Assembly (NCBI GenBank): GCA_011800155.1
Contig: CM022372.1
Coordinates: forward strand, 1,922,001-1,986,000
Source: Flammulina velutipes
Lineage: Eukaryota > Basidiomycota > Agaricomycetes > Agaricales > Physalacriaceae
Direction of reading: 5' to 3'
Length of the DNA stretch: 64,000 bases
The notes below the pieces were generated by a model, which was not told where the DNA came from, searched no databases, and worked only from the letters and a program-made list of their open reading frames with translations. A program made the position numbers and the translations under genes. Shown in pieces: positions 2,993 to 21,705 of this stretch (position 1 is the first letter of the stretch; every line of letters begins with the position of its first letter).

Positions 2993-5900
2993 TCAGCGTC
3001 CGCCGGAGAGGCGACTAGCTACTGATGAGCGCCCAGCCTCCAACTGATCAAATGTGACGTCACTGCTGTGGAAAAGATGAGAACGCGCTTTAATGTGAAA
3101 AATGAGGAATCTCACCCGGCCAAGGTCAACGTTAACCAAGTGTCCGTTATACTTGAACTGTGCAACGTGACAGACAATGTTAAGCGGAGATATAACATCG
3201 AGATCGGCAACCGTCTCCAAAGAATAGCTGGTGGCGGGAAACCACGGAAACACAGAAAATGGGTCAAACTCGCCAGAAGGAAGAGGACGATAGCGTGAAA
3301 TATGGAACTGGACTTTTAAGCCATCCGACGAGGATGCGATCTTCTGTATGCTCCCCGTGTAGGTTGTCAATGATCCGGGAATTGAGTAACGCACTAAGCT
3401 GTTACCAAGATGAGTGCTTTGACGGGTGTAAAGAGCACCATCGTAGGCGTAGCGAGCTGTCTCGCCAGATTGTGTGCCTGGTGCAAAGTCGTTATTGTCG
3501 TCTGGTGAATACCGGTGCGACAAGGCCTTGTCCAAGAGTCGTTTGAATTCCCGGAGTATCGGTGGGCAATTTTGATGCCTCAGGAGTTTGCGTAGGTTCG
3601 ACCCTCGAGTAAATGACCTGACGATGGTCGTTTCAGCTTCGCCTATGGCAGTGAATCAGACCATTGCATATGACGGTTCTAAGAAACTCACCTCCGATAT
3701 GAGTGTTCGTGTTGATCTTCTGAACTGTCCCAATAAGACGCTCGAAGGGAAATGTCCACCAGGAATTCACTGGACCAAAAAGCTTCAAGAAGTCATAGAT
3801 ATGGAAAGCCGCGTGCACATTTGGTCTGCGCTTTTGCGTTTCGGTATGGGGATGAACCTTGTGTAATCCGTCGACCCATGTCTTTAGCAAAGCGCGATAT
3901 GCTTCCATTCGCTCAACGCTCACGCTGTAACAACAGAGGATGTTGACTGCTTGGAAAAGTGCCATGGTATGCGATAGGACCTCGCGTTCACGAGGCGAAG
4001 AGCTTTGAGACCCAAAAAGGGTGATGAGCGCGATAGGAAGGTAGATGGTCGACAGAGTACGCCACTCGTCTGCCTTGATGGTCCCCTCGACTGCTTCACC
4101 GAAGCGCTTTGGTACAGTGTTGATCCATGTGGGGACAGTACAATCTTTTATTACGGCCTGAATGTGGTCGATAACTTCCACGGTGATGTTTCGAGGGGGA
4201 GTCAAGGAGGGGCGAGGTTGATTATCGCGCTAAACATGGCGATCAGTAGTGTCCAATGCATGAGTTCAAGTCCTTACCCATTTCATCAAAGCTAGCGTGT
4301 ATTGTTCTTTATTCTTGAGAGGCGTGTTGATGATCTTGCGTTCGGTCTCGTCGCTCGCCGAAGTGAAGACGAGTGTTCGCTTCAACTCGTGGATTCCGAG
4401 TGACCAGGCCACGAATCGAAGCGCTGCTTTCGGCTGCTTGAGGAGACGACCTTTAAGAGTGTCGCGGGTCAAAGAATGTTCGCCGGATTCGAAGGGATGT
4501 TGCAGGAGGTCATGAATAGTATCGATAGCTGCTAAGCACTTTTTGAAGTTGTCCTTGGCTAGATTGATTTGGGCATTTGAGGGCACCTCCGCATGCACGT
4601 ACGCTTTCCACGAGTAAACGAAAGCGGCAGATGGTCTGAACTTCTTCTCGGCGGCTTTTTTGTCGATCTCAAGGACGTGACGGCAATGATAATGCACCAA
4701 TCCTTCCAAGACGCAATGCATGCTGTCGATAACAAGCATGCGGGTGGGATTCCAATAAGGCAACCTCCAAAACTCCGACCAGCGTATACCGTGAGCATCG
4801 AAGATTGCTTGCTGGCTGGCAGCGGTGTCGGCTCCTAAGTAGTCTTCAGCTGCCCTCCTAAGAGTGTTCACGTCCCGTAAGCTCCATGGAAAGGTGATAT
4901 TGTAACTTTGGGCAAATTGATCACAAACAGTGCACCATGACGAAAGAGGGCCCGCAGCGCCTCCAACCTTTCGAGCGGCAGGAAGGTCGTTGACAGAAAT
5001 GACGATTGCGAAATCCATGATACGGCCTGTGGAGGAAGATGCCGTTCGGGAAAGTCGTATCCCAGTGTTCCAGCCGACAACACATACGTCGATTATGGGT
5101 TCCATGTAGCATGGCAACTCGTCGTAGTCAGGTTCCTTCGGTCCTGGGATGATAGAGGCCATAAATATGTTTTCTGGCTTATAACGCATGTCGGCTGGAA
5201 GGTTGAGGATGGAAATAGAGACGATGCCAAGAGAGTCACTTGCTCCTCGAAGGGTAAGTCCGTTGGGATTGAAGAAGTCGACTTGCATCGCGAGAGCTAG
5301 TCGAGCACGATCTCCTCGATCAATGAAGAGTTTACGTGTGGTCGGTGAGGAAGGGGGAGCCTGGAATGTCCGTAGGAAGTCTCCGTCGAAGGCGTTCTGT
5401 AGGTTAGGTTGACATGCGGAGGTGGAGTCAGCATCGCGATTGACGCTGGCGAAAGCATCATCGCAGGCCTTGTCACAAAGCCGTTCGAGCTCTTCGTCGG
5501 CGAGGACACGGGCGAGATGATCCTCTAGCGAGGCGACAGGATATGCCTTTTTGGGGCGCAAAGTACCATGCCGTAGCACGGTCAGCTCGTCACCGCACGG
5601 ACGACGACGAGCTTGGGGATTTTCCTTGTCAATGATCATACACCCACACGTTTTGGGATATTTAGCAGTGACCGACACACTGCTAGAGAACTCGGGGCGG
5701 TGGCAATAGCTGCATGACGGGCATACAGCAAATATCGTGAGCTTCCCGTCCAGGTTGAGAGAGTTGAGGGAGGAGTATAAGGTGGAGGGGAGCTGTTCTA
5801 GGACATGATCATGGAAAGGGGTTTTCGGTTGACCCGACCGACCGACCTCGAGAGAAGCACCCGCAATGAGCCCAGCGATACTGATGATGAAGTCGCAAGC

Positions 5901-6964
5901 TGCGTGCGAGAGGCCGAGGATGAGATTGCACGCCAAACCCAGGAATATGACGAGCTGGGCAACGGCAGTCTTCCCCTGGAGAGGATCCTGAAAAAGAAGA
6001 CCTGCAACACATTAGTTCAGGAATATGATAGCTGGCGCTGAAATTATATACCTGTTTCAATGACAGGAGGTTCTGTCGTTACCCGCGGAGGCAAAGTCGT
6101 ACCAAGCAAACTGATGATCCCGTCTAGCTCTTGCAAGCTATCCCTGGCCGTGGCAAGTTCCGCAACGTAGTCATCCTTTTTCCGCCGTCGGACAGCGGAG
6201 AGATTCTTGCTTAGGCTACGGGCGGTATCACTGGCGGTGTCCAGCGTATTATAGCGTTGGTCTAGCGCTTGTTTATTGGTGACGTCAACAGGATGTAGTG
6301 ACCTGAGTTCTTCGACCAGTGCCTCTGCCTTGTCTGAGACGCTCTGTATGATGGTATGGGCTCGTTGGGACTTCGTAAGATGGACTCGACCGCCAGCCCG
6401 ATTGACACTTCGAGAGCCACCACGAAAAGTTGCTGGTGTCGCCTGTCCGAATAGGCCAGACTGAAAGACTGAGCGCACGCCATGTTCTAGATCACCAAGC
6501 GAAGCTCCCATTATGCTGGAAGGGATGGTAGGAGAGATGCTGGTTTGGTAGGCATCTCGTGAAGTCCACAGTCTGTGCGGAGCTTCATGTGCGGGAGGGG
6601 CATCGCTGATTGTCGTAGCGGCTACCATGTCGGCTAGTTGGTTGAATATCTCATCATCTGATCGAGAATCCTGTGTCGTGCGCGAAGACGTTGACCTATC
6701 TGCAAGATTGTCGATCCCGATATGTTCAGCGCCTACTCTGTAAGTCCCTCCTCGAGCCAGGCTGACTGGTTCGACGCCTTCAACCACTGGTGCAACATGG
6801 CCTGTTGTTGACTGACGCTGCAGAGAAATAAGGGATAAATACGACCTATGCATACAACAACTCACCAATGCCTGAATGCGCAAGTGTTCCGACTGCTGAG
6901 CAGACGTCACTTGATGCGGAGGATAGAGCGTACAGAGGCAGTTCTTGACGCGAGAGCGACTCAT
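2993..6964 (-). CDS. Tnp2-type (CACTA/CMC) DNA transposase, apparently complete
   Basis: Transposase-like protein of the Tnp2 group that is abundant in Agaricomycetes. The ATG at 6964 begins a Cys-rich N-terminus (CLCTLYPPH). Exons then join in frame: ...QAL/RQSTTGHV, ...VIETG/LLFQDPLQGKT, ...ALMKW/RDNQPRPSL and ...NTHIGG/EAETTIVRSF, through short GT-AG introns near 6.83, 6.03, 4.25 and 3.65 kb. Diagnostic stretches are a CPSCSYC cluster, WRLPYWNPTRMLVIDSMHC (the Tnp2 core), WWTFPFERLIGT and NTNTHIGG (a DUF4218-like tail). The product is about 1,250 residues with no internal stop or frameshift, so it may be functional. TGA is at 2993-2995. The 5' side faces hairpin cluster 1 (7.2-8.0 kb). Terminal repeats of the element were not found, so its boundaries are unknown. 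Confidence 0.85.
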
Positions 6965-7148
6965 GATATGAACGGCAACTCGAGGGTATGCAGGTCGCGT
7001 TGCAACATGCTCCTACATATAGGTAAGGACGACCAAATCGAGTACAAAGTCACCATGGCACTTACAATAAGTCAAGTTTTACCGCATAGGGTTCAATGAA
7101 CCATGTAAAGATGACATTTTGTAAAGGGCCTATGTGATAGATTAGTAA

Positions 7149-7606
7149 GTACACCTTGTAACGAAGAGAGAATAATGGGTGTACCTATGCCGAGCAACAT
7201 ATGGATGGTCCAACGATTTGACGCAAAGTCAAACCACAGAGAAAAACACGAAGTTTTTCCCCACTGAGGCGCTCATGAACGCAAAGTTCTCGAGCAATTA
7301 GTCGTATAGATGGCCATTGTGAATCTCGAAGGTGCATTGCCAGGTCCTCCATGAAGACTCCACAAGGGGTCAAGTTGATGGCCGCCTGACGGCCAGTGGC
7401 GTAATGCGAGAGCGCCTTGTGTCTTAAAGGATATGTTCGTGAGCCCTTGTTAGCAAGAAGAGAACAATAAACAAACATACCATGCCGAAACTAGTTTCAT
7501 CAGACGTAGGTCACCAAGATTTGAACGATTTGACACAAAGTCAAATCGCAGAGCAGAACACATAGTTCTGCTCCACTAAGATACTCAAGGACGCAAAGTC
7601 CTGAGT
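7149..7606 (-). repeat. Hairpin cluster 1, left arm (six 5-nt-loop hairpins)
   Basis: Six hairpins lie upstream of the transposase gene: 7217-7233 (6 bp, loop GCAAA), 7241-7259 (7 bp, ACGAA), 7271-7295 (10 bp with two mismatches, GCAAA), 7526-7548 (9 bp perfect, ACAAA), 7551-7573 (9 bp perfect, ACATA) and 7583-7606 (9 bp with one bulge, GCAAA). Stem sequences differ completely while pairing is kept, and every loop closes with C-G. Read on the minus strand, the strand of the neighbouring transposase gene, the loops are TTTGC, TTCGT, TTTGC, TTTGT, TATGT and TTTGC. Three looser palindromes are nearby: 7149-7155/7178-7184, a 6-bp stem with a 4-nt ACAA loop near 7354, and 7379-7395. Confidence 0.8.
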
Positions 7607-7878
7607 GAGTAGTGGTGGGCGCTGGGCAACCTTACAGAGATTGCTGACATAACCCGACGCCTGATCCGTCGTCCTCGATCTTCCTCGATCTTCCCGAGCC
7701 AACGTCTCATCTAAGTAACAGCTGTTCAATCGTCTCTGCGTTCTTCAGGCTCTCATGCACTCCTTATACTGTCTCTAGCCTGTATTATGCTGTCTCCTTG
7801 GGTTATCTCGTAAGACGGCGACTTGGGAAGTTTATTTCTCGGCTGAGTCAGCTTGCCGCTATTTCTATTCTAACTACG

Positions 7879-9184
7879 ATGTCGACCTCCAATCTGGATT
7901 ATTTTTTGGGAAGGTGCGTCTTTTTTTTTACATTTACCGTCCAAATCGCAAGGCCTTTGTGGTCTTGCTGAATGAAGACTTTGAGTCTTCAGCCGGTTTG
8001 AGAAGACTGTGAGTCCTCGCCCGTCGTTTACCTCCTTGGCCCATTTTCACCTCACAAAATAGGGCTCTGGTTACCCAAATCACAGTTGTCTCGGGAATGT
8101 ATGTATACTCCCCTCCTGTCTTTCTATAAAATCTAATCCATCGCAGAATGATAGGATGTACGTTGCGTTCTGTACTTTACGTTCATCGATTCACGATTAT
8201 AGTCGCCGTCTGCCAATATATAGGACTGTTCTCTCTTCACGGGTTGAATGGTAGAAGACTCGTCATCATCGTTCGTCGTTCCAGATTTTCGTATCCATCA
8301 GCTGCTGACTCCTTCCAGTCTTCTTTAGCCGGCATTCTTCTTCTTGCGCATTTCGGACTCGTCGACGCATTTCTGACAGGAGAATTGGACAAAAAAAGAA
8401 ACACCTGTCTTTCCGCCATCGCTTTGGCTCTCATGGGTTGTGCCACGGCGACCACAGATGGTTACTTCGTCTCCTCATTCTTTTCCTTTTCGAGGACCAT
8501 CCCTCGCCGAATTCAACGTCTTCTTCGGTCCCTAGTTTGGATTACCGCAACTACCATCCTCGCAAACACGGTCTTCAGTATTATCGCTGCAACAGAAATG
8601 TTACTAGATAATCAGACCTCCGCCAAGGCCTTCATCGTCGCGACTCACTCAGCTTCTATGGCCACGGACTTTCTGTGCGGGATGATGGCACATGTGATCA
8701 TTTCTCAGCTTGAAGAGGCCTCCATGGAAATGGTGCAGCGATACCTAAAGCAGCAGGTATATTACCATCGCTACTTTGTATCTCTACCAGCAATCAATGA
8801 TATTCATAGAAATACTTGATCATAGTCACTCGCGCTTTCACTGTATGCCTGTCGTGTGGTGTTATCACAACGGTGCGCTATTCTAACTCCAGCCCCATAT
8901 ACTTTATTGAATTGCCTCTCAGACAGCTGCTTCCAAAACAGAGATTGGGAGAATCATCGAATTGTTCATTGTTCCTAGTAAGGACCACTGATTCATATTT
9001 GACTATTCTAAGTTTTGTAGGTCGCGTTATTGCCATGTACGGGATTCTCAATCGTCGGAGGTGGAGGCATCAAAGTACGGACTGCGAGGTTCACTTCGTC
9101 CCGTCCGGAGATGCGTTCAACTTCGAAGATATAGATTTGAACGAATTCAGAGACAAAAGCGAGACGGAGGAGATGAAAGAGTGA
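7879..9184 (+). CDS. Multi-pass membrane protein, DUF6534-like
   Basis: Probable seven-helix membrane protein of the DUF6534 group common in Agaricomycetes; function unknown. The ATG at 7879 starts a short exon (MSTSNLDYFLG), and after a long intron (about 7914-8146) the main exon gives several hydrophobic helices, for example SSLAGILLLAHFGLVDAFL and LVWITATTILANTVFSII. A third exon from about 8810 (KYLIIVTRAFTVCLSCGVITT), a fourth with TAASKTEIGRIIELF and a last exon with MYGILNRRR, resembling the family's TLNAR end, follow and end in an acidic tail at TGA 9182-9184. All joins keep frame. Intron 1 is unusually long and contains hairpins 7938-8018. The similarity to DUF6534 is from architecture and weak motifs, so the family name is tentative, but the exon chain is convincing. 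Confidence 0.62.
7938..8018 (+). repeat. Hairpin cluster 1, right arm (three 5-nt-loop hairpins)
   Basis: Three hairpins: 7938-7958 (8 bp including a G.T wobble, loop TTTGT), 7973-7991 (7 bp perfect, TTTGA) and 8002-8018 (6 bp with one A/C mismatch, TGTGA). The loops now read T-N-T-G-N on the plus strand, opposite to the left arm at 7.2-7.6 kb and in the sense of the DUF6534-like gene whose first intron they occupy. Confidence 0.75.
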
Positions 9185-9355
9185 AATCACATAGCAAAAA
9201 TCTTGGTCACAACGAAAAAATGTATTATTATATCTTGTAGAATATACACGAGTCGCCCCAATATTGTCCGAAACGCAGCATCCTGATACTGCACATGTAT
9301 TATTAGAATTATCGTATACAGTCTTTGTCTGAAAATACAGGTGGACGCAGTAGGC

Positions 9356-10895
9356 CTAGAAACTACACAAACCATCTGTGAGGTGCGCTTTATGTGCCGC
9401 ATACGAGCGACACCGACCACAACCTTCACATTTGATTTCCATCGTAGATATCACGGCCCATACATCCCGAGGGACACCAATTCGCGAGTTCCACTCAATC
9501 AAGGCTGCAAGGCTCGGCGCGAATACATCGACCCAGTCGGGTGCCCCCTCCGGAAGAGTAGAGTTGCGTTGTAGAGGAGTTTCTCGCTGATCGATATCAA
9601 GAATCACTAATGAAGCTATTTAATGAGACAATTACTTCGGAGCAGGGGAGATACTGACCTTTGCGACGTTGATACCAGTTGTGGCAGTACCCACCCGCAA
9701 CGATGTGATCGAAATAACCCGCGTTTGAGAATACACATGAGCAAATCGAACAGACGACAGAATTATCCCGGATGATATGCCATGCTTCGGAGGGGATGCC
9801 ACACGTCGAATGGAGCTCCCGAATGGCATGACCGATGTCAGTTCCCATGAACTGGGTGAAATGGTTCGCATTACGCTGAGCCGCTCGATCCAAAGCCAAA
9901 TCCCATGGTCGTAGAACGTCAGCCGTAGTGTTGGTATGTGTTGGGTGGTCGACTAGGCCTGAAATCAAAAGTCTGAGAACGAGCTCATTGTTACAAGCGA
10001 AAGTTTTACCTGACGAGAAATCACCCTTGCGGTACGACGATTCCATCCGGGAGCAAAACTCGGTGTCTGGAAAGATAATCAACGAAATCTATGGGGCCAC
10101 TAGTAAAAGTAACTAACCATAGAGGGCACGCGAGTTAGCTTTTTCGCGGTTGAAGTAAACATGGAAGGGTGGAAGAGGGGCTTGGGCTTCTGGCGTGGGA
10201 GGGTAGTGAGAGTGCTCCCAAGCGAACTCGTCACTCAGAGGATCATTCAAGGTAGGGACTAGCACTACAAGCAGATCAATTTCCGCGTACAAAGGCTCAA
10301 AAAGCCGCTTACCACGAAGCGAGCATTTATGAAGATCATTTCGGGCCTCGAAGTAGTCGACGCCATCTGGAGTACGAAATAATGACATTGTACACTCCTC
10401 CAAACAGCGGTAGGGATTGAGTGAGTGCGGACAGATAAGCGTGGGCAGAGCAGAACCAAACTGGAAGCCATGCAGAGAGGTCATTGTTCCGTCGTCCCGC
10501 AGGATGAAAGGCCTGTGATGGCGGTAAGAAATGGAAGGTATATGTTAACATTTGACCTACCTATTAACCTCCTCCCACTGAACAGTGCGAGGGTTGAAAC
10601 TGACAATGAGGCCGCTGTCATACACAGTAGCTAATTGCCGGGCGCAAGATGCCATGAAGTCCTCCGATGGTTCATTAGCTGCAAAGAGCTTCTCGAAGAA
10701 CCTTGTGGATTTTCGAGCACGGCGAGCTTCCTCGGAAGGATGATTCAAATTGCTCTTGGGGCGAGGGCTACGAGTGGGACGCATAGGTGTGGGACTTCGA
10801 AGCTTCTGGGATTTCCTGGTCGATTTCTTGCTGGTCGCTGTCTTGCCGGGTGCTTTCTTGAAAGCGTATTTCTTCGATTGTTTGTAGGGTAGCAT
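9356..10895 (-). CDS. Unrecognised protein with a basic N-terminus and two tandem C2HC-like modules
   Basis: I do not recognise this family. The ATG at 10895 opens a Lys/Arg/Ser/Pro-rich N-terminus (SPTPMRPTRSPRPKS) that could bind nucleic acid or target the nucleus. A middle part with CPHSLNPYRCLEECTM and RNDLHKCSLRGKRLF follows. The C-terminal half contains two similar units in separate exons: AIRELHSTCGIPSEAWHII ... CSIC ... H-x5-C and AALIEWNSRIGVPRDVWAVI ... CEGC ... H-x7-C. Each is an 'I-E-x-x-S-x-x-G-I/V-P-x-x-W-x-x-I' stretch followed by a CxxC...H...C pattern. Exons join in frame through short introns; the last join gives RRK/VILDIDQRE, and TAG is at 9356-9358. It is divergent from the gene at 11486 across hairpin cluster 2. 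A role in nucleic-acid binding is an inference only. Confidence 0.6.
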
Positions 10896-11036
10896 GATAA
10901 TGAGAAGACGGGCATAACGGAAGACTTGTTTTATGATTATATATGCTAAGAAAAACTCACAATTGGGTATCCAAACGCGTACACAATAACGCAGAAAGTG
11001 ATGGGGCCGAAGTTCGCGCTTTGAAGACAATAATCA

Positions 11037-11308
11037 GCTTGGACACAGAGTCCAAGCGAAAGCCTAGCTAATGACACAAAGTCATTCGCATTTCAGGAAT
11101 ACCTCGGAGCAATGACCCACAGTCATTGCCTAGCACTCGTGGTGGTGGTGGTAGAAGCTGGTAGAGGTCTCGGGTAAGATGGCTGATGACATCAAATCAG
11201 CGGTTGGCTCATTACTATCATCTGAAGACTATGCGTCTCCAGATGATAGACCGAAGACTTTGCGTCTTCGGTGGCGATTCACTGGTGTCTGTTTCGACTT
11301 TGCGTCGA
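11037..11308. repeat. Hairpin cluster 2 between divergent genes (six 5-nt-loop hairpins)
   Basis: Left arm: 11037-11057 (8 bp perfect, loop ACAGA), 11070-11086 (6 bp, ACAAA) and 11109-11129 (8 bp perfect, CCACA). Right arm: 11216-11248 (14 bp with one A/C mismatch, TATGC), 11250-11272 (9 bp perfect, TTTGC) and 11294-11308 (5 bp, TTTGC). Polarity changes between 11129 and 11216, so each arm reads T-N-T-G-N in the sense of the gene it precedes (minus gene at 10895, plus gene at 11486). A decayed copy is at 11182-11201, and two other palindromes with longer loops, 11348-11357/11370-11379 (10 bp) and 11382-11387/11396-11401, continue toward the plus gene. Confidence 0.8.
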
Positions 11309-11485
11309 GTCAGTCTCCTTGATCGTTGTAAGGCCAACTGAATGGGTGGCTATTGTTTTTCGGTATGTGAACAATAGCCTAATTGTCTTGAAACTGACAA
11401 TAAGATAGATTTCCATCGCGCGGTAGTAGTCCGCCTTGCATCTCATATACGCTGTCTATCACTCCAGTCCTCCAACACCCAACCC

Positions 11486-13844
11486 ATGTCTGACGATACA
11501 TCCGATGTAAGATTCGTTTCACTTATCCAGCGCTTTTGTCTTAACTATTCTACAGTCTCCCAACAAGCGACCCCACCTAGGCGATGGTCCTTCACCATCA
11601 CCTGCTGCAACTCCAAAAAAGAAAGCGGCGGCCGTGGATAGGCGTAAACTCGTGAACGACTTGAAGGCTAAGCTAGAACAGGCCTATACGCGCGAAAAAG
11701 AGCTCAGGCGGGATCTATCTCAACGAGATGTGGACGTGCGAAAACTCTCCGAGGACATACGGAGCCGGGACCATGAAATTCTCCAATTAAATCTACGTGT
11801 TGCTGAAGGGAGTTACGACGGCGAGGATGTTGAGATGAGCAGGCTCGAGGAGCTCGAGGAGCTCGAGGAGAAATACGAGGTTTTGCAAGAAGCTTTGCAG
11901 ATATCGGTTCGTTTCTTTGGCTCTGATGGCGCTTGTCTTCCGTACTGACATTCCTTAGAATCGTCAAATCGAAGCTATCACTTTTGAGAAAGCTGAACTC
12001 GCTAAATCGACAATGGTTTTGCAACAAGACCTCTTATCAGCCACGAAAAAGCATGCTGATGACTTGGCGCAAGCTGCCGTGAAAACTGACGCATTGCTGG
12101 TTCGTGTTCTGCACATTATGCCGCTCTAGCGCTCATCGAATCTAGGTTGCCCAAAGAGAAACATTTGAAGCTCAAATTGAATCAAACGCTCGAGAGTATC
12201 ACAAAATCCTGGTATGTGCCCATAACCACGCGGTCTACGAAATATATTCAATCCATTCAGGAGCAGAGAAATATTCAGATTGTCAAATTGCAGTCACAAC
12301 TGGAACAGGTAAGGTACTGTCTCTTCGCAATGAAAAAAGGCGCTCATTCTCTCCAAGGCGTTCAGGTCACCTAGAAACCCATCCCCATCTCCAGAGCGAC
12401 ACAATGCACGTTTTCGACGGCCTACTCGTGGACGTGCGCGCGGACGCAAATTCGATCCTTCGAAACTGGCGGCTCCGCTTCCATCGCTTCCAGTTCGTCT
12501 TGAGGTGCCTATGGATGCGAGTACAGCTACAGGAGCATCGTCAATGGCCGATGACGCAGCGACTGCAGGAGCTTCTATGCCATCGTCAATAGCAAGTGAT
12601 GCAGCTCCTCAATCAAGACCTCGCGCTCCTCAAGTAGGAGAACCTCAGCCTCCAAAAACCCTAGTTCGCCTTGGCGTCGATCCTTCGCGCGGTCCTGAGG
12701 AACGGTTAATCTTTCATAGTCACTATTCCTGGACCAGAGTCATTTCCGATGAAAGGATAGCTTGGGCCAAGTACCTCGATCAACTCGCAGCTTATTACAA
12801 ATGTAATCGTTCCGACTACGCAAATGAATACCATGTAAGTTACTTTGCCTCTATTCCTTAGCCATGCCCTGATGTGTTGACTACCGTACCAGGCCATAAA
12901 TCGCGAATTGTGGAGAGAGATATACGGAGTTCCAGGCTACAGTGATTTTAGCGGTTACACTCCCGTGAGTGACGCTGAAGCGCAAGCCCTTTCGAATGGG
13001 ACTGGTGCAGGACCTGATGAAAAGTGTCATCTGTACTTTGGTGACCAGTTCACTAGTTCTATCTGGAACCGAAGAGTCATCGAACGACTTACTAGGCGCT
13101 TCAAGGAATTGGCCGCGCAGGAACAATCGTGGCTACCTCCCGTTTCTGACGGCTACCTCGCCGGACTGCTCCACAGTTCCCTCGTACAATGTCAAAAGCA
13201 CTGGAATCAATGGCAACCCAGGAGGGACGATACGAAGGACAGGCTAGAGACAGTAGACGAAGCTTTAGCTCGGGCGTCTTCTGAACGAGAACAGAGCCTT
13301 CGGCAGGCAAGCCTAACTACTATCCGTACAACAGTAAGTCCCTTTATTGCGTGTAGGAATTGCTAAGAACAAATCAATCTAGAAATTACAACGTCGACAG
13401 TACTGGGTCAACGTAATTCTGTCGATGAAGGAAGCCGAACAACCCCCGCCCCCAGATCTTGGTGTTTGGAGACAATGGGCTACGGGACTCTCCAAATGTC
13501 GTCCGGATGTCATGACTGACGAAGAATTTACCATCGAAACCAAGAGCGACGGCACCAAGCATAACGTGTACCTGATTGGACAGCCCCCTTGGAGAGACAC
13601 GACTCTTTCGCTGGCGCTCAGGACTATCGACAGGGAGGCGAAGGCGGCTGATTTAAAGGGAGTTCCGACGGCGATTGCGACAGAACGTAGATATACCAAC
13701 GAGATTAGCACGCAGCGCGCACCTGAAGGACTCTATAGGCCATTTTACGACTCCGCTTGGTTGACAGAACGCCTGAAGACATCGGATATGTATGTAGAAG
13801 AACCCGATTTCGATTGGCACGAGGTTACCATAACCAACTTGTAA
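11486..13844 (+). CDS. Coiled-coil, RGR-rich protein with conserved C-terminal domain; function unknown
   Basis: Multi-exon gene starting MSDDTSD/SPNKRPHLG (ATG 11486) and ending TITNL with TAA at 13842-13844. Residues of the first third form long charged heptad-like helices (RRKLVNDLKAKLEQAYTREK; several ELEE repeats), so a coiled coil is likely. Next comes an SP-rich linker (RSPRNPSPSPE) and a basic RPTRGRARGRK stretch resembling an AT-hook. The C-terminal half is globular, with HYSWTRVISDERIAWAKYL, AINRELWREIYGVPGYS and a late GQPPWRDTTLSLALRTID segment. Joins ...QLEQV/RSPRNP and ...NEYH/AINREL keep frame. I recall similar proteins, with a PWR motif, as lineage-expanded hypotheticals in Agaricomycetes but cannot name a function. 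It converges with the gene ending at 14028. Confidence 0.6.
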
Positions 13845-13873
13845 ATATAATCAATGTATTTATCCGCACACAG

Positions 13874-13919
13874 CAAAGGCCAACACTGGCCTTTGGCCAG
13901 CTTCTCGCCAATGGCGAGA
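13874..13919. repeat. Three abutting palindromes between convergent genes
   Basis: Just past the stop of the plus gene at 13844 lie three palindromes in a row: 13874-13882/13887-13895 (9 bp, 4-nt loop), 13886-13891/13895-13900 (6 bp, 3-nt loop, overlapping the first) and 13903-13910/13912-13919 (8 bp around one base). They differ from the other clusters in loop size and lack the T-N-T-G-N loop, and they sit at 3' ends rather than 5' ends. A role in 3'-end formation is possible but not shown. Confidence 0.6.
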
Positions 13920-14027
13920 TGGACCTTTGTGCGTGCTACTTCATAAACTTCAGTAAGACAGCGAGTAGTTCCAGGACTTTCTCAATGGTGACTGAAACCG
14001 CACGGCGAAATAGATGGATTACTAATT

Positions 14028-16236
14028 TTACAGCGACAACGTTGGATTTAAGGTGAAAGGTATGATAGGCGGGCGTCCCAAAACATCGTATGCAAGTTGT
14101 AGGTAATGTCCAATCAGCGCACGTTCCCAAAGCTCGCCATCTCGGAAAGGCGCGTCCCCTTTAAGGGTCTCCGGAAGTGGGACTGCCCATTCAGCCATGA
14201 CATCTCTCCACTTTTCGAGGTAAAGGGAGCGTAGTGCCCACTCTGGATCATGCAGACCACTGAGGGCACGATTTGCATCCACTGCCGTCAGAGACTTCTC
14301 AGGGAAGATGGAGAGGAGTTTGGTTGAATGATCCAAGTCTGCGCCCAGGGCCTCATCCTGCTCGTAAGCAATTGAATGCTTTGGGTTCTTGTACAGGCGG
14401 CTGTCGACACGACATAGATCACTGCGGAAGCCGATCTGTGAAATTTCCCAAAGTATGAGACGGCGTTCCTCTGCCTCGGTTTCGCCCATTTCGGGTGGCG
14501 CAACTAGAGACTGTTGGAATTCCATGCCTTGCATTTCAAAGCATTTACCGAGGACCTTCTTCGCCTCGTCAAATGAAGCGCGGGCCAGGGATTGCGGGTT
14601 ACCGGACTTCTCACTCGTCCGAAGGCCAAGTATTGTTCGCCATTGTTGTGTCGGGAGCATGGGAGATGATGATGCGACTCGATAGATTAAAACATCCCGG
14701 AGGTAGCGATATTGCGCAAAGTAGTCCGTCGATTTAGCAGTACCAACGAACATGCCAGGCGGGGGGAAAGCGTACTGATGTTTCGAGGGACGTTCGTCGA
14801 AGAAACGAGTGGATTGTATGTCGATCCTGGCATTCATCCCTGTCCAGTTTTGCGAGAGGGGGGGATAGTCACCTCCGACAAGATCTTGTAAGAGAGTGGG
14901 AGAGAGGTCTGCGAGGAACATAGATGATTAAACGTGTACATCATGCGAGAACCAAACTTGAACTTACTAATCTTGGGATTCTTAATGGTCTTTGTCTTCA
15001 TTTTTGCGTTAGGGCCAGCTCGGTAGGAGTCTCTCCGTTCTTGAACCTTTTGTCGAGTATAGCGAACGGGACCTGCGGTAGGCCCCAAGGATGAAGACGA
15101 CGCTGCTGGCGGGGGGATGGCTGGCGTTTGCGAATTCGAGCCACGGGCATCTCGGAAAGAATATGGGTCGGCGTAAGTGATGAAACGGGCGACGTAGATA
15201 GACATTTGGTGTAGGGCCTCTAATGACTTCTGCCCATGAGCGAAGACGACAGGGAGAGGTTTTTCTGGCAGGATGAAAGGGCCAAGATGGCCAACGTCGC
15301 ATGTGGATAAGATCTTGACATTGACGAACGCAGACCATGGGCGCATGAAATACGTCGGAATTTTCGCAGGAAGAAACAACTCGACAACATGTAGAGCTGA
15401 GGTGTAGACACCAACAACCCGGACTCGTAGCTCGCTCTCGCTATCAGGGACCGATCCATTCATGAGTGGTCGGTAGATGGTCATATAACGTATTGTGGCG
15501 AGGAGGAGGAGCCACGTCCTCTGGAGACCACGTGCAAGGACGCGCAAGGAAAGGATGTCCTTCGTCAACGAAGAAAGGCGGTCAGCGTATAGTTCCATAC
15601 GACGCAATAAGAGTGGCAATAGACTGCGAAGGGTTGAATTGTCAGAAATGTCATTGAGGTAGGTCTCAGTCTTGACTTTTAGAGCGGTAACGGATCGATT
15701 AAGTGGGTCCAGAAATTTGCGACTGACTCTCCCAATCCCGGATATGACCCCCTGAGTCCAGTCGACATCCTCAGATTTCAATAGGGCCCACATGCAGCGG
15801 TCTTCGTAAAGAGGATGCTGCGTATCATCCGGCGCTGGGCACAATGGGACGACTGCCAATTGAGGTATGGATTCGTGGTACCATTGCGGGGCACAGACGA
15901 AGTCGTGAGGGCCGAACGACCCGTCTCGATACACTGAAACCTCAGTCTCTGGGGGTGGCGGTGGGATAGACTTGACGGGACGATGACAAGTAATGAACGA
16001 CGTTTCGAATATTGTGCCTACGTAACCGTCGTTGGCCTTCAGGACGTCTGTAATATATGATGAGCACTTGGGTAGAACAGTAGGTCCGACGCAAAAGGAA
16101 GACTCCGAGCGTCTGAACAGAGCTCAAAGCTCTGCCAACTGACTACAAGGATCAAGAAGCACTCACTGGATTCTCCCTCCTTGGGTGCGTCTCGGGTAAG
16201 GTCATGGACGCGTAGAAACTTGCTCGTAGAAGCCAT
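14028..16236 (-). CDS. Unrecognised transposon-island protein (WRTILGL-type hypothetical)
   Basis: The ATG at 16236 starts MASTSKFLRVHDLTRD. An intron of about 115 nt (16051-16165) leads to a long second exon (NDGYVGTIFETSFITCH..., then a helical region with RRMELYADRLSSLTKDILSL), and a third exon starts NLSPTLLQDLV after an intron near 14.93 kb. The last third has QQWRTILGLRTSEKSGNP and ARASFDEAKKVLGKCFEMQG, typical of a hypothetical family that I recall as repeatedly found in Agaricomycete genomes. TAA is at 14028-14030; the product is about 640 residues. No catalytic motif is recognised. It is the third of a -,+,- gene trio separated by hairpins, and intron 1 itself contains a hairpin (16118-16134) with the same loop type in the sense orientation. 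Confidence 0.6.
16118..16134 (-). repeat. Single hairpin inside intron 1 of the 14028-16236 gene
   Basis: Stem CAGAGC/GCTCTG (6 bp perfect) with a 5-nt loop TCAAA on the plus strand, that is TTTGA in the sense of the host gene. The loop type and polarity match the intergenic clusters, although the base pair next to the closing C-G is G-C instead of A-T. Confidence 0.6.
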
Positions 16237-16320
16237 TCTGACCTAGGATTGATATGTCAGTTGAAAATCACCAATTTAGTCGATTGTCGACGAACAATAC
16301 GCGTTGAGGATGGACACGAG

Positions 16321-16598
16321 ATTGAAGAATTGACACAAAGTCAGTTCTTCAATTTCAGAGCGCAAAGTTCTGAAGTGGCGGGGGCCAAAAACACAAAGTT
16401 TTCGGAGAGTTTGAGATCGTAGTGAAAGCCAGAAAGCGCGAGGTTGTCGTGATCATGATTTGCCAAATGATGGGATCAATTCGTCTTCTCCACCCACCAC
16501 CAGCCGCCACCATCTCCAGTAGATCCAATGACTCTGAGTCATTGTATCTTGCTCTCCTGTACTTTGTGTACAGGATGGTGTTGATGACTATGCGTCAT
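16321..16598. repeat. Hairpin cluster 3 (six 5-nt-loop hairpins)
   Basis: Left arm: 16321-16353 (14 bp with one T.G wobble, loop ACAAA), 16354-16374 (8 bp with one G.T wobble, GCAAA) and 16385-16405 (8 bp with one A/C mismatch, ACAAA). Right arm: 16521-16549 (12 bp with one mismatch, TCTGA), 16555-16575 (8 bp perfect, TTTGT) and 16584-16598 (5 bp plus G.T, TATGC). The first two hairpins abut. The left arm is in sense with the gene starting at 16236. The right arm points toward a WD40 gene that runs in the opposite direction, so here the expected plus-strand partner gene is absent. Confidence 0.8.
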
Positions 16599-16726
16599 TC
16601 CATCGCCACGGTGAGGTGAGGCCTCTGGAACGTTCAAATTATCAATTGGATGTACGAACACGCATAGTTTCGACTTGTATCGAGGCAGCTACGTTATTGA
16701 CAACTGACTAAATAACTAACGCCGCT

Positions 16727-18458
16727 TCACTTAACTCTTGTAGCGTTTGTCAGGAATGTATCTGTCGGGAAATCTCCATCCGACAGCTCGCTGGTGAAGG
16801 TGACGGTACTGGTGGCAGTAGCAGTGACGGTGGTGGTGCTGGTGGTCGTGACGGCTGTATTGGTGGCGGCTGTACCGGTAACATCGATGAACTCGACTCC
16901 GACTGGGATCTCGTTTAGTGTTCCCTGTCCTGTTGTATCATTGTCTGGCATAATCTCCTACCCAACGGTTAGTTAATCGTCGCTTTGCTGAGAATATGAC
17001 CAACCTTGGAGATAATACCAGGTATCGTACCTAGATACGGACTCAATGTCGACCACGTTTGTTCCAAGTATTGTCTAACACTCAGCTGAAGGACAGGTAA
17101 GTGATCAGTAGGATTCAATGACAGAAGCTGACCTCGGATTCTACACAGGCCAATCTCCCGCCAAGAACGGCGAACACGGAGACCAAGATGACAAGGATTA
17201 CTTGGAATAGACGATGGACCCACGTCTTCCTGAAGACGAAGATGTCGCATCGGCCTCTGTTGGTCATTGCGTGGCCTGCAACGATTGCTGGAACACCGTT
17301 AATAGTTGTCGTCTTGGTATGTCAGATAATCAATTTGCGCCCACAACTGTTGAACTCACTGCAACAGCCTGAACCCAGGCGTCCTTACTTGTCTGGAGCC
17401 TTTGCAACACGGTCCCCGTCTTTCGATCGAACACGTAGACGATCCCATGGTCGCTACCACTGACTATGACAGTACAATCTTCGGCTAGCGCGACTTGTTT
17501 GGGCGCCGCTAGCTCCTTCTTCCGCGGGACTTCAAGCACTTTGAGGCGCGTAGCATCGTCCATTTTGTACAATGCCACACCCCCTAAGATGGTGTCGACA
17601 CAGAATACGTTCTTGGTAGCATTGCAGGCCGCAGCTCCACTTTGGGTATGTCAATTTCAGTCTATATGAAGTCGGCATGCATACTCACATCTTAATTCCA
17701 TGCAGCATCGACTGTGAATTATCCAACTGCCCCGTGCTCGAATTCAAGATCATACTACTGGGAATCAATAAATCGCATCATGAAAGCGACAGCGTACGAA
17801 CATGGCGTCGTGGAGGCCGAAAACCATCACATTCTTCGATATTGTGAAGGTAACGACTTTCGGGATGCAGTTGTCGACTCGGATAGTCCATAAATCAACT
17901 GTTGTGTGCATCGTAGACGGGTCCAAGCAAAACACCGTGATACAACCTTCTCTGTTTGCGGCGACCAGCTTGCAAGTTGCAGAGTCGTAGGTGATAGACG
18001 TGATCTCGCTAGGGAACGCCAGTCGGACAACTTGGGTTTCCTCGACACCGCTCTTTGCGAGGGTAAGTAACTGGCAACAAATCAATGGGTCGGAACTCAC
18101 TTCTCGTTTGTACCTGCAGAAGGCGATGTAGCCTTCCAGAGTACCGTATATGAACCCCTCTTCAGGACAGTCATCGCGTCGGATCCAAGTGATTGCAGTC
18201 GTCGCGCCTCGTACGTTAAATGTCGAGTAACGGTGCAACTCCACCATATCTTCTAAGCTCCAGACGAACGTCCCATCCCCACCTTGTTCAAGTGAGCACG
18301 TTGTCGAGAGAGATGAAAATGCGCTCACCTCCGCTTGCTAGGAGCTTTCCGCTCTCCGATATGGCCAAGCACAGGACATGGCTTTCGTGGCCCCGGAGGA
18401 CGGTCTTCTTGTTATAAGTATTCACAGCGCGGTACCAGCTTCGGAAATTCATGATCAT
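16727..18458 (-). CDS. WD40-repeat protein with C-terminal transmembrane helix and Thr-rich tail
   Basis: Propeller protein of unknown partner, predicted to be membrane-anchored. The chosen start is the ATG at 18458, MIMNFRSWYRAVNTYNKK; an in-frame upstream ATG at 18536 is possible. WD-type blades include VLRGHESHVLCLAISESGK, SGGGDGTFVWSLEDMVEL, NREGCITVFCLD and SGSDHGIVYVFDRKTG. After TTINGVPAIVAGHAM a helix RLFQVILVILVSVFAVLG forms a probable single membrane segment. The last two exons encode LSVRQYLEQTW... and a Thr-rich tail (TSTTTVTATATSTVTF), ending in TGA at 16727-16729. Exons are joined by several 45-60 nt introns, for example ASG/GGDGTFV and WVQAVA/TTINGV. The fold and anchor are clear; which side of a membrane the propeller faces is not. 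Confidence 0.75.
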
Positions 18459-18961
18459 TGCTGACGATTCTTCAAGCATACAGCTACTTATACCACCTGG
18501 CGCACAATAGACATGCGCTCCCGCTGGTCTTTCCAATTGTCAGTCCGCTCGGTATGAACTGCTCCGTTTTGGCCGCTGATGTTTCCTCAAATCGCGACGT
18601 ACGTAGACAATAGGTTTATTATGTTTCTATCTACTCCGATTATCTACTCATTGAACTCGCCATAGGCCTTCTGGTTCATCGAAACAATAGGCATACTTGC
18701 CAATTGTGAGTGCCCATTGAAATCCGTGGGCTCGTTGCGTCGTTTCCAGGGAGACCTCAATGACTGTTACGAGTATCAATAAACAATAGGTATGCGTTCT
18801 AATTGTGCTTTCCTCTTGAGGTTCCCTTCGTCTAATTGTTTCCCATCATAGGTGCTCGTCATCTGACTTAACTATTGTTGTTCTATAATCGGTCTTCGTA
18901 TTGTTTCATGCCATATGAATATGGCTAGCAGACCATCGAGCTAAGTATCTACAGTCTCATC

Positions 18962-19917
18962 ATGCCCAAGATACCATCCGTAACTTCCTTGCCAGGAGCT
19001 CATGCTAGCCGGCCGTATCCAAAGCCTCCCACCGTCCTCGCCCTCGCCCAGACAGGGTTTTCGGCAGAGACTCTCTCTGTCTTGCCTCTTGCACTGCAAG
19101 ATGTCAGGGAAACTACAGTTCAAGAATCACTCCCTCGTCAGCAGAAGGCCACGCAACGTCGTCCGACGTTTGCACTCTTCTCGAGGTTCCGAGGGCGTGA
19201 GGAGTAAGTAGCACTATTTACTCTACCGACCAAGGCTCACTCAGTCAATCCTTTGATCAGTGAATCTTCTGACTCCAATGTCACGCCGAGCGCCGATGGG
19301 TACGCAAAATCTATATCTCGAAAGACATACTCATAATCATTCCAGATCGAACACGGATAACAGTACTGGCAGTATCCCGTCACTGCCTACGGTTCCTTCT
19401 CCTCCCGTCGTCGCTCCTTCTGATATTTCGACTATCTTGATACCGCATCCGGGGAAAAGCACCGGCCGAGAGCAACTCAAGTTAAGGATGAACCTTGGGG
19501 AGGCCACAGAGGATATATGCGTGAGTTTCTCTTCAACTACATCTAGTTCTGGCTGATACATCGTGTAGCAATATGTCCAGGAACTGGCTCAAGAGTATCT
19601 TGACCTTACAGTCAGCTATGAACATCAGACACAAGATGCGCTCAATCTGGTTAAGCTCAAGGTCTGTTTTTCTCTGCCTCAAGTAGCTAATTCTCGGTCT
19701 AATCACATTGTTACAGGCATCTACCAGATATCCCCAACTCAACAACTACGTCGACGTCTGGCCTGTCAAAGACCTCCTCATCTTTGACTGCAAGGCTGGC
19801 GTTCAGAGGACGAAGACCCAGAAGACTAGGGAGACCAGGGTAAAAGCCAACCAAAGGAGCTCGAGCGAGAGGCCCACTGGGCGACCAGCTTCCAGACGGT
19901 CGACGCTGGCCGGGTGA
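18962..19917 (+). CDS. Hypothetical protein, five exons
   Basis: The ATG at 18962 opens MPKIPSVTSLPGAHASRPYP. Exons join in frame at GREDESSDSNV (intron about 19204-19259), PSADG/SNTDNSTGS, TEDIC/QYVQELAQEYL and LVKLK/ASTRYPQLN. The N-terminal half is low-complexity, Ser/Pro/Thr-rich. The middle part KLRMNLGEATEDICQYVQE is helical, and NYVDVWPVKDLLIFDCKAG precedes a basic, probably disordered C-terminus (KTQKTRETRVKANQRSS). TGA is at 19915-19917; about 230 residues. No family recognised. The consistent exon joins and codon-level continuity argue that it is a real gene. Confidence 0.55.
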
Positions 19918-21705
19918 CGCTTATCTTAGTAGGAGTAAATAACAATATGCCGGTACATATCGCGAAAGTTTAGTAATATCGATTATGTCTCCTTCTTTAT
20001 CTCGCGTAGTCAGTGATCTTCAAAATATGAATAAGATGCATGGACAAATTAGCAATTCATGTGCGAGTAGCTAACACATGTATCTCCGCAAGTTGCTATT
20101 TGGTAGAAAGCTATGTTATTCCCACACATTTATCTTGCGGCTCAGTACAACATTACTCAAAATAATTCACCATGACAATGACTATCCGGTATAATAGGAC
20201 TAAATTTCTCAATTACTGAGTCCTTTTCGGGAACACCAAAATAAATATTACCCAAAAGAGTTTCTCGGATACCTAAACTACCTTGTCCACGGTGTGTGAA
20301 CTTTGCATCAACCCAGCTCTTTATTCGACTTTCTACACACCGACGACACGTTTGTGCTCAACACTCACCCATGGCCATCCAATGCTCCTTGAGTAGTCAA
20401 GCCTTCAAGCTTGAACGTTCCCATTCGCTGGCACAATCACTATCAAACGTTGAGCTGTACGAGTAGGAGGATCCAAGTGAGTATTGCCGATATCCGACAT
20501 TGTATGTGTGTTCACAGAGCTTTAGGGATACTTTGTAGCCAGATGGGCGTGTCAACAAGAAAAAGCCGCGGTGGGAACAAGGGCGTATCTTCCATGATTC
20601 ACGGTTGGATCATCCTGCTATGTTCTCGGTGAGCCGCCAATGTATATTCTCAATGGGTTGCAGATACTCACCTAACAGTAGCTGCTCTGTCAAAGTCGAA
20701 ACCGAAAGCTTCTATTCCTGCTGTCACCCGCCCTGCCGTATTCGTTTAACGTTAGCCCCGGCAGTGTCCCGGCGTTCATGATTGCTAGCACCACGTGGGA
20801 AGTTATTTCGTCGTTTTCACCCAATATTTCCAGGACGTGTGGCAAAGCCAATACAGGCATTATGTGTGCCACACTGAGGCATAATCATCGTCTGTACGAT
20901 TTTATGCGCTTATCATGAGCGGAAGTGCCCAAATTGAATCTGGTATGGACTGCAATGCCCCGAAGTTGACGTGTAGGGATGTGATGCAACGCCCGCCACT
21001 ATTTCCTCAGATCGTCGGGATTCGAATCGACTTGGTACGCACCTACGAAGGGCGAAACGAGGTGCCATTGATTGGTTGTGTTGGAAAGGAACAGGAGAAA
21101 GGTAATTCTTATGAATTTGTTGGTGACAGTGGACCCACCTAGCAGATAGATATTTTCCGAGAAGAGATACACTGTCTTGTCTTGTGGGGCGTGGATATGT
21201 GGCTCAGTTCTGCCATTGACAAGTGTTTATCGCGACATCTTGTAGGCATGATTCTGACCTGCACGACCGCAACATTTCATGACCATCAGTAATCGACTAC
21301 GCCTCACATACGGAACTACTCACCCTTTCCCTTATTATTGACCTATGCGAACCTCTCCAACGACCTTTCTGGTTCCAACTGTGTATCTCCAGAGGTATGT
21401 CGTTTGCATGTCTTGTAGCGGTCCGGTTGATATTCATCGTAGATAGGGCTTTCAATTTGCATGTGAACAACGCAGTCTAGGTCTTCTTCGACGGTGGTAC
21501 TAGCTTTAAGCGTTATGCAGTCTATATTCTGGCCGATGCTGGTGTCTTATTTGGCGATCATCCTAACTGGGTCACTCAGACTGACGATTCGACATTGTTT
21601 ACGTCATCATTGGACACTTTGATTCTGACGCAGAACATTGAGGAAGTATCTGTAAGTTCGAATTCTGCACGCTAGTCAATTATTCTGAGTCTTTTACTAC
21701 ATCAG
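19918..21705. other. Intergenic, no firm gene; possible exon at about 21480-21651
   Basis: No convincing gene. Short open stretches near 20.37-20.75 kb look exon-like but could not be joined in one frame. An exon-like stretch at about 21480-21651 (acceptor CTAG before it, donor GTAAGT after it) encodes VFFDGGTSFKRYAVYILADA and could be a 5' exon of the BTB gene at 21706, since the join ...IEEVS/MISPTF keeps frame, but paralogues give no support for it. Confidence 0.35.

What the first reader, a model, noticed from the sequence alone, without database searches (positions are those of the whole stretch)
7217..16598. At least 22 hairpins with variable stems and one conserved 5-nt loop, in three clusters and one intron
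Stem sequences are unrelated between copies yet pair over 5-14 bp, with wobbles and single mismatches (for example 16321-16353, 14 bp with one T.G; 11216-11248, 14 bp with one A/C). Every loop is exactly 5 nt, closed by C-G in all 22 and by A-C/G-T in 19. Read on the appropriate strand, the loop has T at position 1 and G at position 4 in all 22, and is TTTGC or TTTGT in 12. Structure rather than sequence is kept, which suggests RNA or single-stranded-DNA hairpins recognised through the loop. The counts were made by eye.
Basis: seen in the sequence. Interest (0 to 1): 0.88.

Follow-up and report, generated by a model that had tools for sequence, protein, structure and literature searches.

The report
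Transposon gene leaders carry triple hairpins
An 18-kilobase jumping gene in a fungal genome carries, in front of most of its genes, sets of three small hairpins whose stems change but stay paired while three positions of the five-letter loop stay fixed, which looks like a shared RNA tag for controlling the element's own genes.

Summary
They belong to a 17.7-kb EnSpm/CACTA-type DNA transposon (window 2605-20296; termini CAC..GTG, 3-bp target duplication, tnp2-type transposase). Five copies lie in this 38-Mb genome, plus three 222-bp elements with the same termini (the two I read lack the hairpins).

The hairpins form triplets. In four distinct copies all 29 chosen regions hold three (87 hairpins). 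The loop is T-N-T-G-N; positions 1, 3 and 4 hardly change (0.6%), 2 and 5 change at 41%. Stems covary: 233 two-sided changes against 87 after shuffling. All 12 genome matches of a two-hairpin pattern fall inside the five elements.

Five of six sets lie upstream of a gene, loop in the sense direction, and move with it when gene blocks are inverted. One set has no clear gene after it, and two genes have no set. Best reading: sense-strand leader RNA stem-loops bound by one factor, a shared regulon working like phage nut/boxB. RNA rather than single-stranded DNA is inferred: wobble and energy tests did not separate the strands. The binding factor is unknown.

The parts
2605..20296 (.). Whole DNA transposon (17,692 bp), EnSpm/CACTA type, with TGA on both sides
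   Evidence: Inverted termini CACACCGTGGACAAG...CTTGTCCACGGTGTG and flanking TGA; same termini on other copies
2605..2619 (+). Left terminal inverted repeat
20282..20296 (-). Right terminal inverted repeat
2993..6964 (-). Gene T, transposase (tnp2-like), 5 exons in a rough model
   Evidence: Pfam Transposase_21 E 5.2e-12, 45.9 bits, cut-off 28.6, on the ORF 4266-5936; model
7215..7295 (-). Hairpin triplet T1, nearest edge 250 nt from the modelled start of T
7526..7602 (-). Hairpin triplet T2, tandem relative of T1
   Evidence: (76.6% direct repeat)
7948..8018 (+). Hairpin triplet A
8148..9184 (+). Gene A, small hydrophobic (membrane-like) protein; start uncertain
   Evidence: conserved exons between copies; model
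9356..10895 (-). Gene B, unknown protein with a Lys/Arg-rich N-terminus
   Evidence: no Pfam match at E 0.1, no PDB match at E 1
11037..11129 (-). Hairpin triplet B, 141 nt from the modelled start of B
11215..11313 (+). Hairpin triplet C, 172 nt from the proposed start of C
11486..13844 (+). Gene C, unknown protein with a charged, coiled-coil-like N-terminal part and an Arg-rich stretch
   Evidence: no Pfam match for a model lacking exon 1 and most of exon 2
14028..16236 (-). Gene D, unknown protein, 3 exons; relatives at 36-37% and one at 28% identity elsewhere in the genome
16118..16134 (-). Hairpin in the first intron (16048-16166) of gene D, loop in gene sense; counterparts before the same exon in the three other distinct copies
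16318..16405 (-). Hairpin triplet D, 81 nt from the proposed start of D
16521..16598 (+). Hairpin triplet X; no gene found downstream on this strand before gene F (18962)
16727..18479 (-). Gene E, WD40-repeat protein; the 3' exons are read by eye; no triplet upstream
   Evidence: no model hit upstream
18962..19917 (+). Gene F, unknown protein; no triplet upstream
   Evidence: no model hit

Best explanation
The hairpins are RNA stem-loops in the transcribed leaders (and one intron) of genes of a multi-gene EnSpm/CACTA-type transposon. Shown: each set is three stem-loops with loop starts 20-41 nt apart; stems covary; the loop is C(U-N-U-G-N)G with positions 1, 3 and 4 nearly fixed; loop direction equals gene sense for five of six sets and follows the gene through inversions; close pairs of the motif are confined to this element family. 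Inferred: the sense RNA folds, the loop makes a UNNG-type turn with the fifth base pushed out, and one RNA-binding protein (of the element or the host) reads several loops on each transcript, so that the tagged genes are controlled together, in the nucleus or at translation. It would work like the boxB hairpins of lambda-type phages: one hairpin tag near the start of several transcripts of one mobile element.
For: Covariation: 233 cells changed on both sides vs 87 shuffled; score 0.684 vs 0.184, and 0.095-0.159 when slid; 74 double Watson-Crick differences vs 21.6. Loop: with no loop condition, 83 of 84 strong 5-nt hairpins in the 29 regions read T..G, 0 flipped; differences between copies 0.6% at loop 1,3,4, 41.5% at loop 2,5, 4.1% at pairs 1-2, 21.6% at pairs 3-8, 54.7% at pair 9 (T1, G4 and C-G closing were conditions when the set for these rates was chosen, T3 was not). 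Direction: sets T, A, B, C and D all point into their gene. The B-C block is inverted in C7b/C9 and the D block in C12/C7a, and the sets travel with the genes. Transcription: in three relatives of gene D (36-37% identical) two hairpins with AC/GT next to the loop lie just before the gene; in the one examined 11 nt separate the second from the proposed AUG, with no in-frame AUG back to the upstream stop. In the four distinct copies one or two hairpins lie in or at the first intron of D, in sense. Confinement: 12 of 12 genome matches of the pair pattern are in the five elements, reversed control 1. Two of three 222-bp elements with the same termini were read and lack the hairpins, so moving does not seem to need them. 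Published UNNG sequences can adopt Z-turns, and a UCAGu pentaloop does (passages of PMC5311481).
Against: Wobbles do not favour the sense strand: in 71 unique hairpins G.U 24 vs A.C 14, as base composition predicts (p 0.87); inside stems 15 vs 11, or 10 vs 9 under a stricter rule. Folding energy is lower on the sense strand in only 18 of 29 triplets, and the z-score favours the antisense in 24 of 29. Triplet X has no gene after it on its strand, and genes E and F have no triplet. The one distant element examined has no such hairpins before its transposase gene. The D hairpins of the relatives have loops TTGT and TTTTT or TTTTGTT, not TNTGN, and score only 12.7-13.7 bits with the model (E about 1-2), so they rest on the stem scan and their place. 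No RNA-binding domain was recognised in B, C or D. The fold model of D is unusable (mean pLDDT 36). No transcript data were available.
Confidence: 0.58

Rival explanations
1. Single-stranded-DNA or cruciform hairpins extruded upstream of the genes, read by a protein through the loop of one strand, for example as promoter signals (like hairpin promoters of phage N4, recalled).
For: No G.U excess over A.C once composition is counted; no clear energy preference for the sense RNA; most sets sit between divergent genes, where negative supercoiling would favour extrusion (inference).
Against: A cruciform shows the loop on one strand and its complement on the other, so flipped loops should be tolerated (inference); 0 of 84 are flipped. 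Hairpins also lie in an intron and 11 nt before a proposed AUG. Triplet D stays intact where inversion has moved it away from its divergent partner.
Confidence: 0.2
2. The pairing is kept mainly by mutation: template switching during DNA replication repairs imperfect short inverted repeats, and the loop is an ordinary DNA motif.
For: Such creation and maintenance of hairpins is published; the same paper says loop inversions were extremely rare and describes a route that fixes the stem while keeping the loop (passages of PMC8794818), so the absence of flipped loops is only weak evidence against it. One whole stem is replaced by another perfect 10-bp stem (set C, hairpin 2, copy C7a). Lack of a wobble preference also fits.
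Against: It does not explain frozen loop positions 1, 3 and 4 beside free positions 2 and 5, three hairpins per set, direction with the gene, or confinement of close pairs to these elements. It could also act together with selection on RNA.
Confidence: 0.12
3. Triple hairpins are small mobile repeats of their own, like the double-hairpin elements of fungal mitochondria, that inserted between the transposon's genes.
For: Sets have been duplicated (T1/T2; X1/X2 in two copies), and sets T and D resemble each other.
Against: Sets lie at corresponding places of the copies and no close pair occurs outside the elements. Direction follows the gene.
Confidence: 0.05
4. Double-stranded DNA binding sites (inverted half-sites GAC-N5-GTC) for a dimeric regulator such as a TnpA-like protein.
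For: GAC/GTC next to the loop is the commonest flank.
Against: Pairs 4-9 vary in sequence yet covary, which a duplex reader with fixed half-sites does not need; loop positions 1, 3 and 4 form an asymmetric centre.
Confidence: 0.05

Closest known systems
EnSpm/CACTA DNA transposons of fungi (CMCT clade)
   Same: CAC..GTG termini, 3-bp target duplication, tnp2-type transposase (criteria from passages of PMC12730594)
   Different: About seven genes, gene-block inversions among copies, and the hairpin triplets; the word hairpin does not occur in that paper's main text
boxB hairpins (nut sites) of lambda-type phages (features recalled; boxB papers seen only in the listing)
   Same: A mobile element marks the start of several of its transcripts with a sense-strand pentaloop hairpin
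   Different: Loop is U-N-U-G-N, not GNRA-like; three hairpins per set; eukaryotic; no binding protein known
UNCG/UNNG loops with Z-turn, including a UNNG pentaloop (passages of PMC5311481)
   Same: U1 and G4 fixed, N2 and N5 free, C-G closing
   Different: Position 3 is U in 85 of 87 and C in 2, so most are UNUG; fold not measured
Double-hairpin elements of fungal mitochondria (search listing only)
   Same: Small hairpins between genes
   Different: Here nuclear, at fixed places inside one transposon family, direction tied to genes
Structured leader of the bacterial ISPpu9 transposase mRNA, and translational control of IS10 transposase mRNA (search listing and starts of abstracts only)
   Same: Transposase expression controlled at the 5' part of the mRNA
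   Different: Bacterial, single gene; no shared loop code that I know of

Membership tests
EnSpm/CACTA DNA transposon | Termini 5'-CAC..GTG-3' | tested here: met
   CACACCGTGGACAAG at both ends in the window, C7b, C9 and C12 without mismatch; one mismatch at both ends of C7a
EnSpm/CACTA DNA transposon | 3-bp target site duplication | tested here: met
   TGA (window) and CTT (C7b): 2 of 2 copies with both flanks read
EnSpm/CACTA DNA transposon | tnp2-type transposase | tested here: met
   Transposase_21 45.9 bits, cut-off 28.6
EnSpm/CACTA DNA transposon | C(2)C and H(3-4)H motifs between catalytic residues | not tested
   Not examined
Plavaka | Plavaka transposase above cut-off; termini TGT..ACA or CATCA..TGATG | tested here: not met
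   15.5 bits, cut-off 26.3, on one exon; termini differ
boxB / nut hairpin | GNRA-like pentaloop (recalled) | tested here: not met
   Loop is TNTGN. Works-like claim only
boxB / nut hairpin | Binding by an arginine-rich peptide of the element | not testable with these tools
   Needs binding assays; B and C have basic stretches
UNNG-type Z-turn loop | U1 and G4 in the loop | tested here: met
   T..G in 83 of 84 strong 5-nt hairpins without a loop condition
UNNG-type Z-turn loop | Measured U1.G4 pair and Z-step | not testable with these tools
   Needs NMR or crystals
Known Rfam families | Score at or above a gathering cut-off | tested here: not met
   0 matches in the window
Mobile double-hairpin elements | Independent insertion at unrelated sites | tested here: inconclusive
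   12 of 12 pair-pattern matches lie in the five elements, but only pairs with loop starts 19-26 nt apart and these letters were covered

The most novel reading that the evidence does not exclude
A eukaryotic DNA transposon has evolved a shared RNA code: triplets of stem-loops with a UNUGN loop in the leaders of its separately transcribed genes, read by a protein of the element itself, giving nut/boxB-like or TAR-like control of all tagged transcripts at once.
Probability: 0.28. Interest if true: 0.87.

Novelty: new variant of a known kind. Interest (0 to 1): 0.74.

Why it matters
Eukaryotic cut-and-paste transposons are usually thought to be controlled at their DNA ends and by host silencing (recalled). 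A structural RNA tag repeated in front of most genes of one element, with stems rewritten while a three-letter loop code stays fixed, would mean that a DNA transposon runs its own post-transcriptional or co-transcriptional regulon. It also offers a natural data set of 87 hairpins for asking how compensatory change proceeds, and a loop motif for finding an unknown RNA-binding protein. My searches of the open library listed nothing of this kind; most subscription papers are not in it, and I saw only listings of these.

Tried and rejected
Rfam: no match at gathering scores. Wobble asymmetry as a strand test: no signal once composition is allowed for; the raw 44 vs 25 counted near-identical copies and chance hits. 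Folding energy as a strand test: inconclusive. Homologues of protein C (model lacking exon 1 and most of exon 2): none among 7994 scored candidates. Homologues of the large exon of D: 3 metagenome proteins at 91, 68 and 64% identity among 7996 scored candidates, no DNA context; none in viral contigs. AlphaFold of that exon: mean pLDDT 36, not used. PDB sequence searches for B and for that exon: nothing at E 1. I looked for a plus-strand gene after triplet X and found none convincing; the open frames there are better explained as the 3' part of gene E. The 99.9% identical copy C9 was left out of the covariation counts. The host species was not identified. On checking I lowered the best explanation from 0.60 to 0.58 and raised template switching from 0.10 to 0.12, because the passages of PMC8794818 make the absence of flipped loops weaker evidence than I had first written.
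Full report
What is there. The window is part of a 38.1-Mb genome in 23 contigs; its genes have short GT-AG introns, as in fungi (inference). Without any condition on the loop letters, the three clusters hold ten times more 5-nt-loop hairpins than shuffled sequence or the rest of the window. No Rfam family matches.

The element. Homology between this stretch and four other places of the same genome runs from about 2600 to about 20300. It ends in perfect 15-bp inverted repeats, CACACCGTGGACAAG and its complement, at 2605 and 20296, flanked by TGA on both sides; copy C7b has the same ends flanked by CTT (these are the two copies with both flanks read). Termini CAC..GTG, a 3-bp duplication and a tnp2-type transposase (PF02992, 45.9 bits, cut-off 28.6) fit EnSpm/CACTA as used in PMC12730594 (passages read). 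The Plavaka model stays below its cut-off (15.5 against 26.3), and the Plavaka termini given there differ. A terminus search found the other copies at C7:2528949-2546950 (C7b), C9:1880162-1898165 and C12:2003643-2021815, a longer one at C7:916959-962536 (C7a) with one mismatch in each terminus, and three pairs of termini 222 bp apart. C7b and C9 are 99.9% identical over the stretch compared. Aligned blocks of over 1 kb are 66-87% identical between the window and the other copies.

Genes. Comparison of open frames between copies and a rough splicing model give genes T (transposase, minus), A (plus), B (minus), C (plus), D (minus), E (WD40 repeats, minus) and F (plus). Start codons of T and A are uncertain. 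A, B, C, D and F have no Pfam match above a cut-off; D was scanned as two open frames, C incompletely.

The triplets. The 22 hairpins fall into seven groups of three plus one in the first intron of D. I took the regions of these groups from the four distinct copies: 29 regions (T1 in 3 copies, T2 in 4, A 4, B 4, C 4, D 4, X1 4, X2 2), chosen because the scan had shown hairpins there. All 29 gave three hairpins each, loop starts 20-41 nt apart, 87 in all, 82 distinct over 23 bases. C-G closing and T..G in the loop were required here; position 3 is then T in 85 of 87, the second pair A-T in 82 of 87, and positions 2 and 5 are mixed. Repeating the scan of the 29 regions with no loop condition, 83 of 84 strong 5-nt hairpins read T..G and none is flipped.

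Selection on structure. On the ungapped alignment of 82 hairpins, 86.6% of cells pair (58.9% shuffled), 233 cells differ on both sides from the commonest pair (87 shuffled, 0 of 500 shuffles as high), and sliding the partner by 1-3 columns drops the covariation score from 0.684 to 0.095-0.159. These rows are related, so the shuffles overstate independence. Counting only homologous hairpins between copies gives 74 double Watson-Crick differences against a shuffled mean of 21.6 (maximum 43 of 1000), spread over 23 of 168 pair columns, 105 columns being invariant. In set C, hairpin 2, copy C7a has a wholly different but fully paired 10-bp stem. Differences between copies (seven sets, X2 left out) are 0.6% at loop positions 1, 3, 4, 41.5% at 2 and 5, 4.1% at the two pairs next to the loop, 21.6% at pairs 3-8 and 54.7% at pair 9.

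Direction. Read with the T-rich loop, sets T1 and T2 point into T, A into A, B into B, C into C, D into D, at 81-250 nt from the modelled start codons for the nearest sets. The block holding B and C is inverted in C7b and C9, and the block holding D in C12 and C7a; the sets turn with their genes. Set X points away from D and has no clear gene after it; on the other strand lies the 3' end of E. E and F have no set in the window. So a triplet lies before five genes of seven.

Are they transcribed? Three relatives of D (36-37% identity; C5:2208577, C9:451237, C9:1767031) have two hairpins with AC/GT next to the loop just before the gene: TTGT and TTTTT loops, TTTTGTT in one. In the one examined in detail, 11 nt separate the second from the proposed AUG, and no in-frame AUG lies between that AUG and the upstream stop. 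Unless transcription starts within those 11 nt, the hairpin is in the leader. They score poorly with the model (12.7-13.7 bits, E about 1-2), so their kinship rests on stem, AC/GT and place. In the window the D intron itself (16048-16166) has one such hairpin, and the other three distinct copies have one or two at the corresponding place, all in sense. A fourth relative (28%, C3) showed none of this kind, nor did the region before the transposase of the C5 relative.

Distribution. GACTTTGCGTC occurs 41 times in the genome, 15 in the five elements (reversed control 13); 11 of the 26 outside sites were read with 10-kb surroundings and none has a cluster. GACTTTGTGTC occurs 36 times, 15 in the elements (control 11); the 21 outside sites were not read. 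The pair pattern ACTTTGNGT-N(10-17)-ACTNTGNGT occurs 12 times, all in the five elements (control 1); it covers only pairs with loop starts 19-26 nt apart. Two of the three 222-bp elements were read and have no hairpin of this kind.

Which strand works? Two tests failed to favour sense RNA. G.U and A.C mismatches occur in the proportion expected from base composition, and predicted energies do not clearly prefer the sense strand. The case for RNA rests on direction with the gene, on lack of flipped loops, on the intron hairpins and on the position next to the AUG. A sense single-stranded-DNA structure is not excluded.

Loop. Fixed U1 and G4, a pyrimidine at 3, free 2 and 5 and a C-G closing pair are what a UNCG-like turn with one extra base would need (inference). 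[quoted passage not shown] PMC8794818 (passages) states that UNCG is stable only in RNA, that template switching can create hairpins and may maintain them, that loop inversions were extremely rare, and that one route keeps the loop. Template switching is therefore the main non-selective rival; frozen loop positions beside free ones, triplets, and direction with genes speak against it as the whole story.

Verdict. A real and unusual structural feature of one transposon family: leader stem-loop triplets, probably read by a shared RNA-binding factor. What it works like: phage boxB (recalled). What it is a member of: no RNA family that I could test. The regulator and the effect on expression are unknown.

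Noticed in passing
window 9314-13933 and about 13950-16410; L010-L017: Gene blocks are inverted between copies of the element; in C7b/C9 the B-C block is bounded by 75-bp inverted repeats (93% identical) that match window 13860-13933, as expected of an inversion through staggered breaks.
   Followed up: partly
window 13880-13940: Two further palindromes (TGGCC-TTT-GGCCA and TCTCGC-CAATG-GCGAGA) lie between the convergent 3' ends of genes C and D; perhaps transcript ends.
   Followed up: no
C1:1429503-1429724, C4:2991899-2992120, C13:259566-259787: Three pairs of the 15-bp termini lie 222 bp apart, like miniature elements; two were read and have internal inverted words of their own.
   Followed up: partly
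C7:916959-962536: One copy has termini 45.6 kb apart, so it may hold further inserted DNA.
   Followed up: no
window 2605-2680 and 20240-20296: AAACTCTTT-like words recur in both orientations near the ends, as in subterminal repeats of CACTA elements.
   Followed up: no
L048 (C5:2202001-2205200) and L044: A distant element has genes resembling C (by eye), T and D on one strand, with no hairpins before T.
   Followed up: partly
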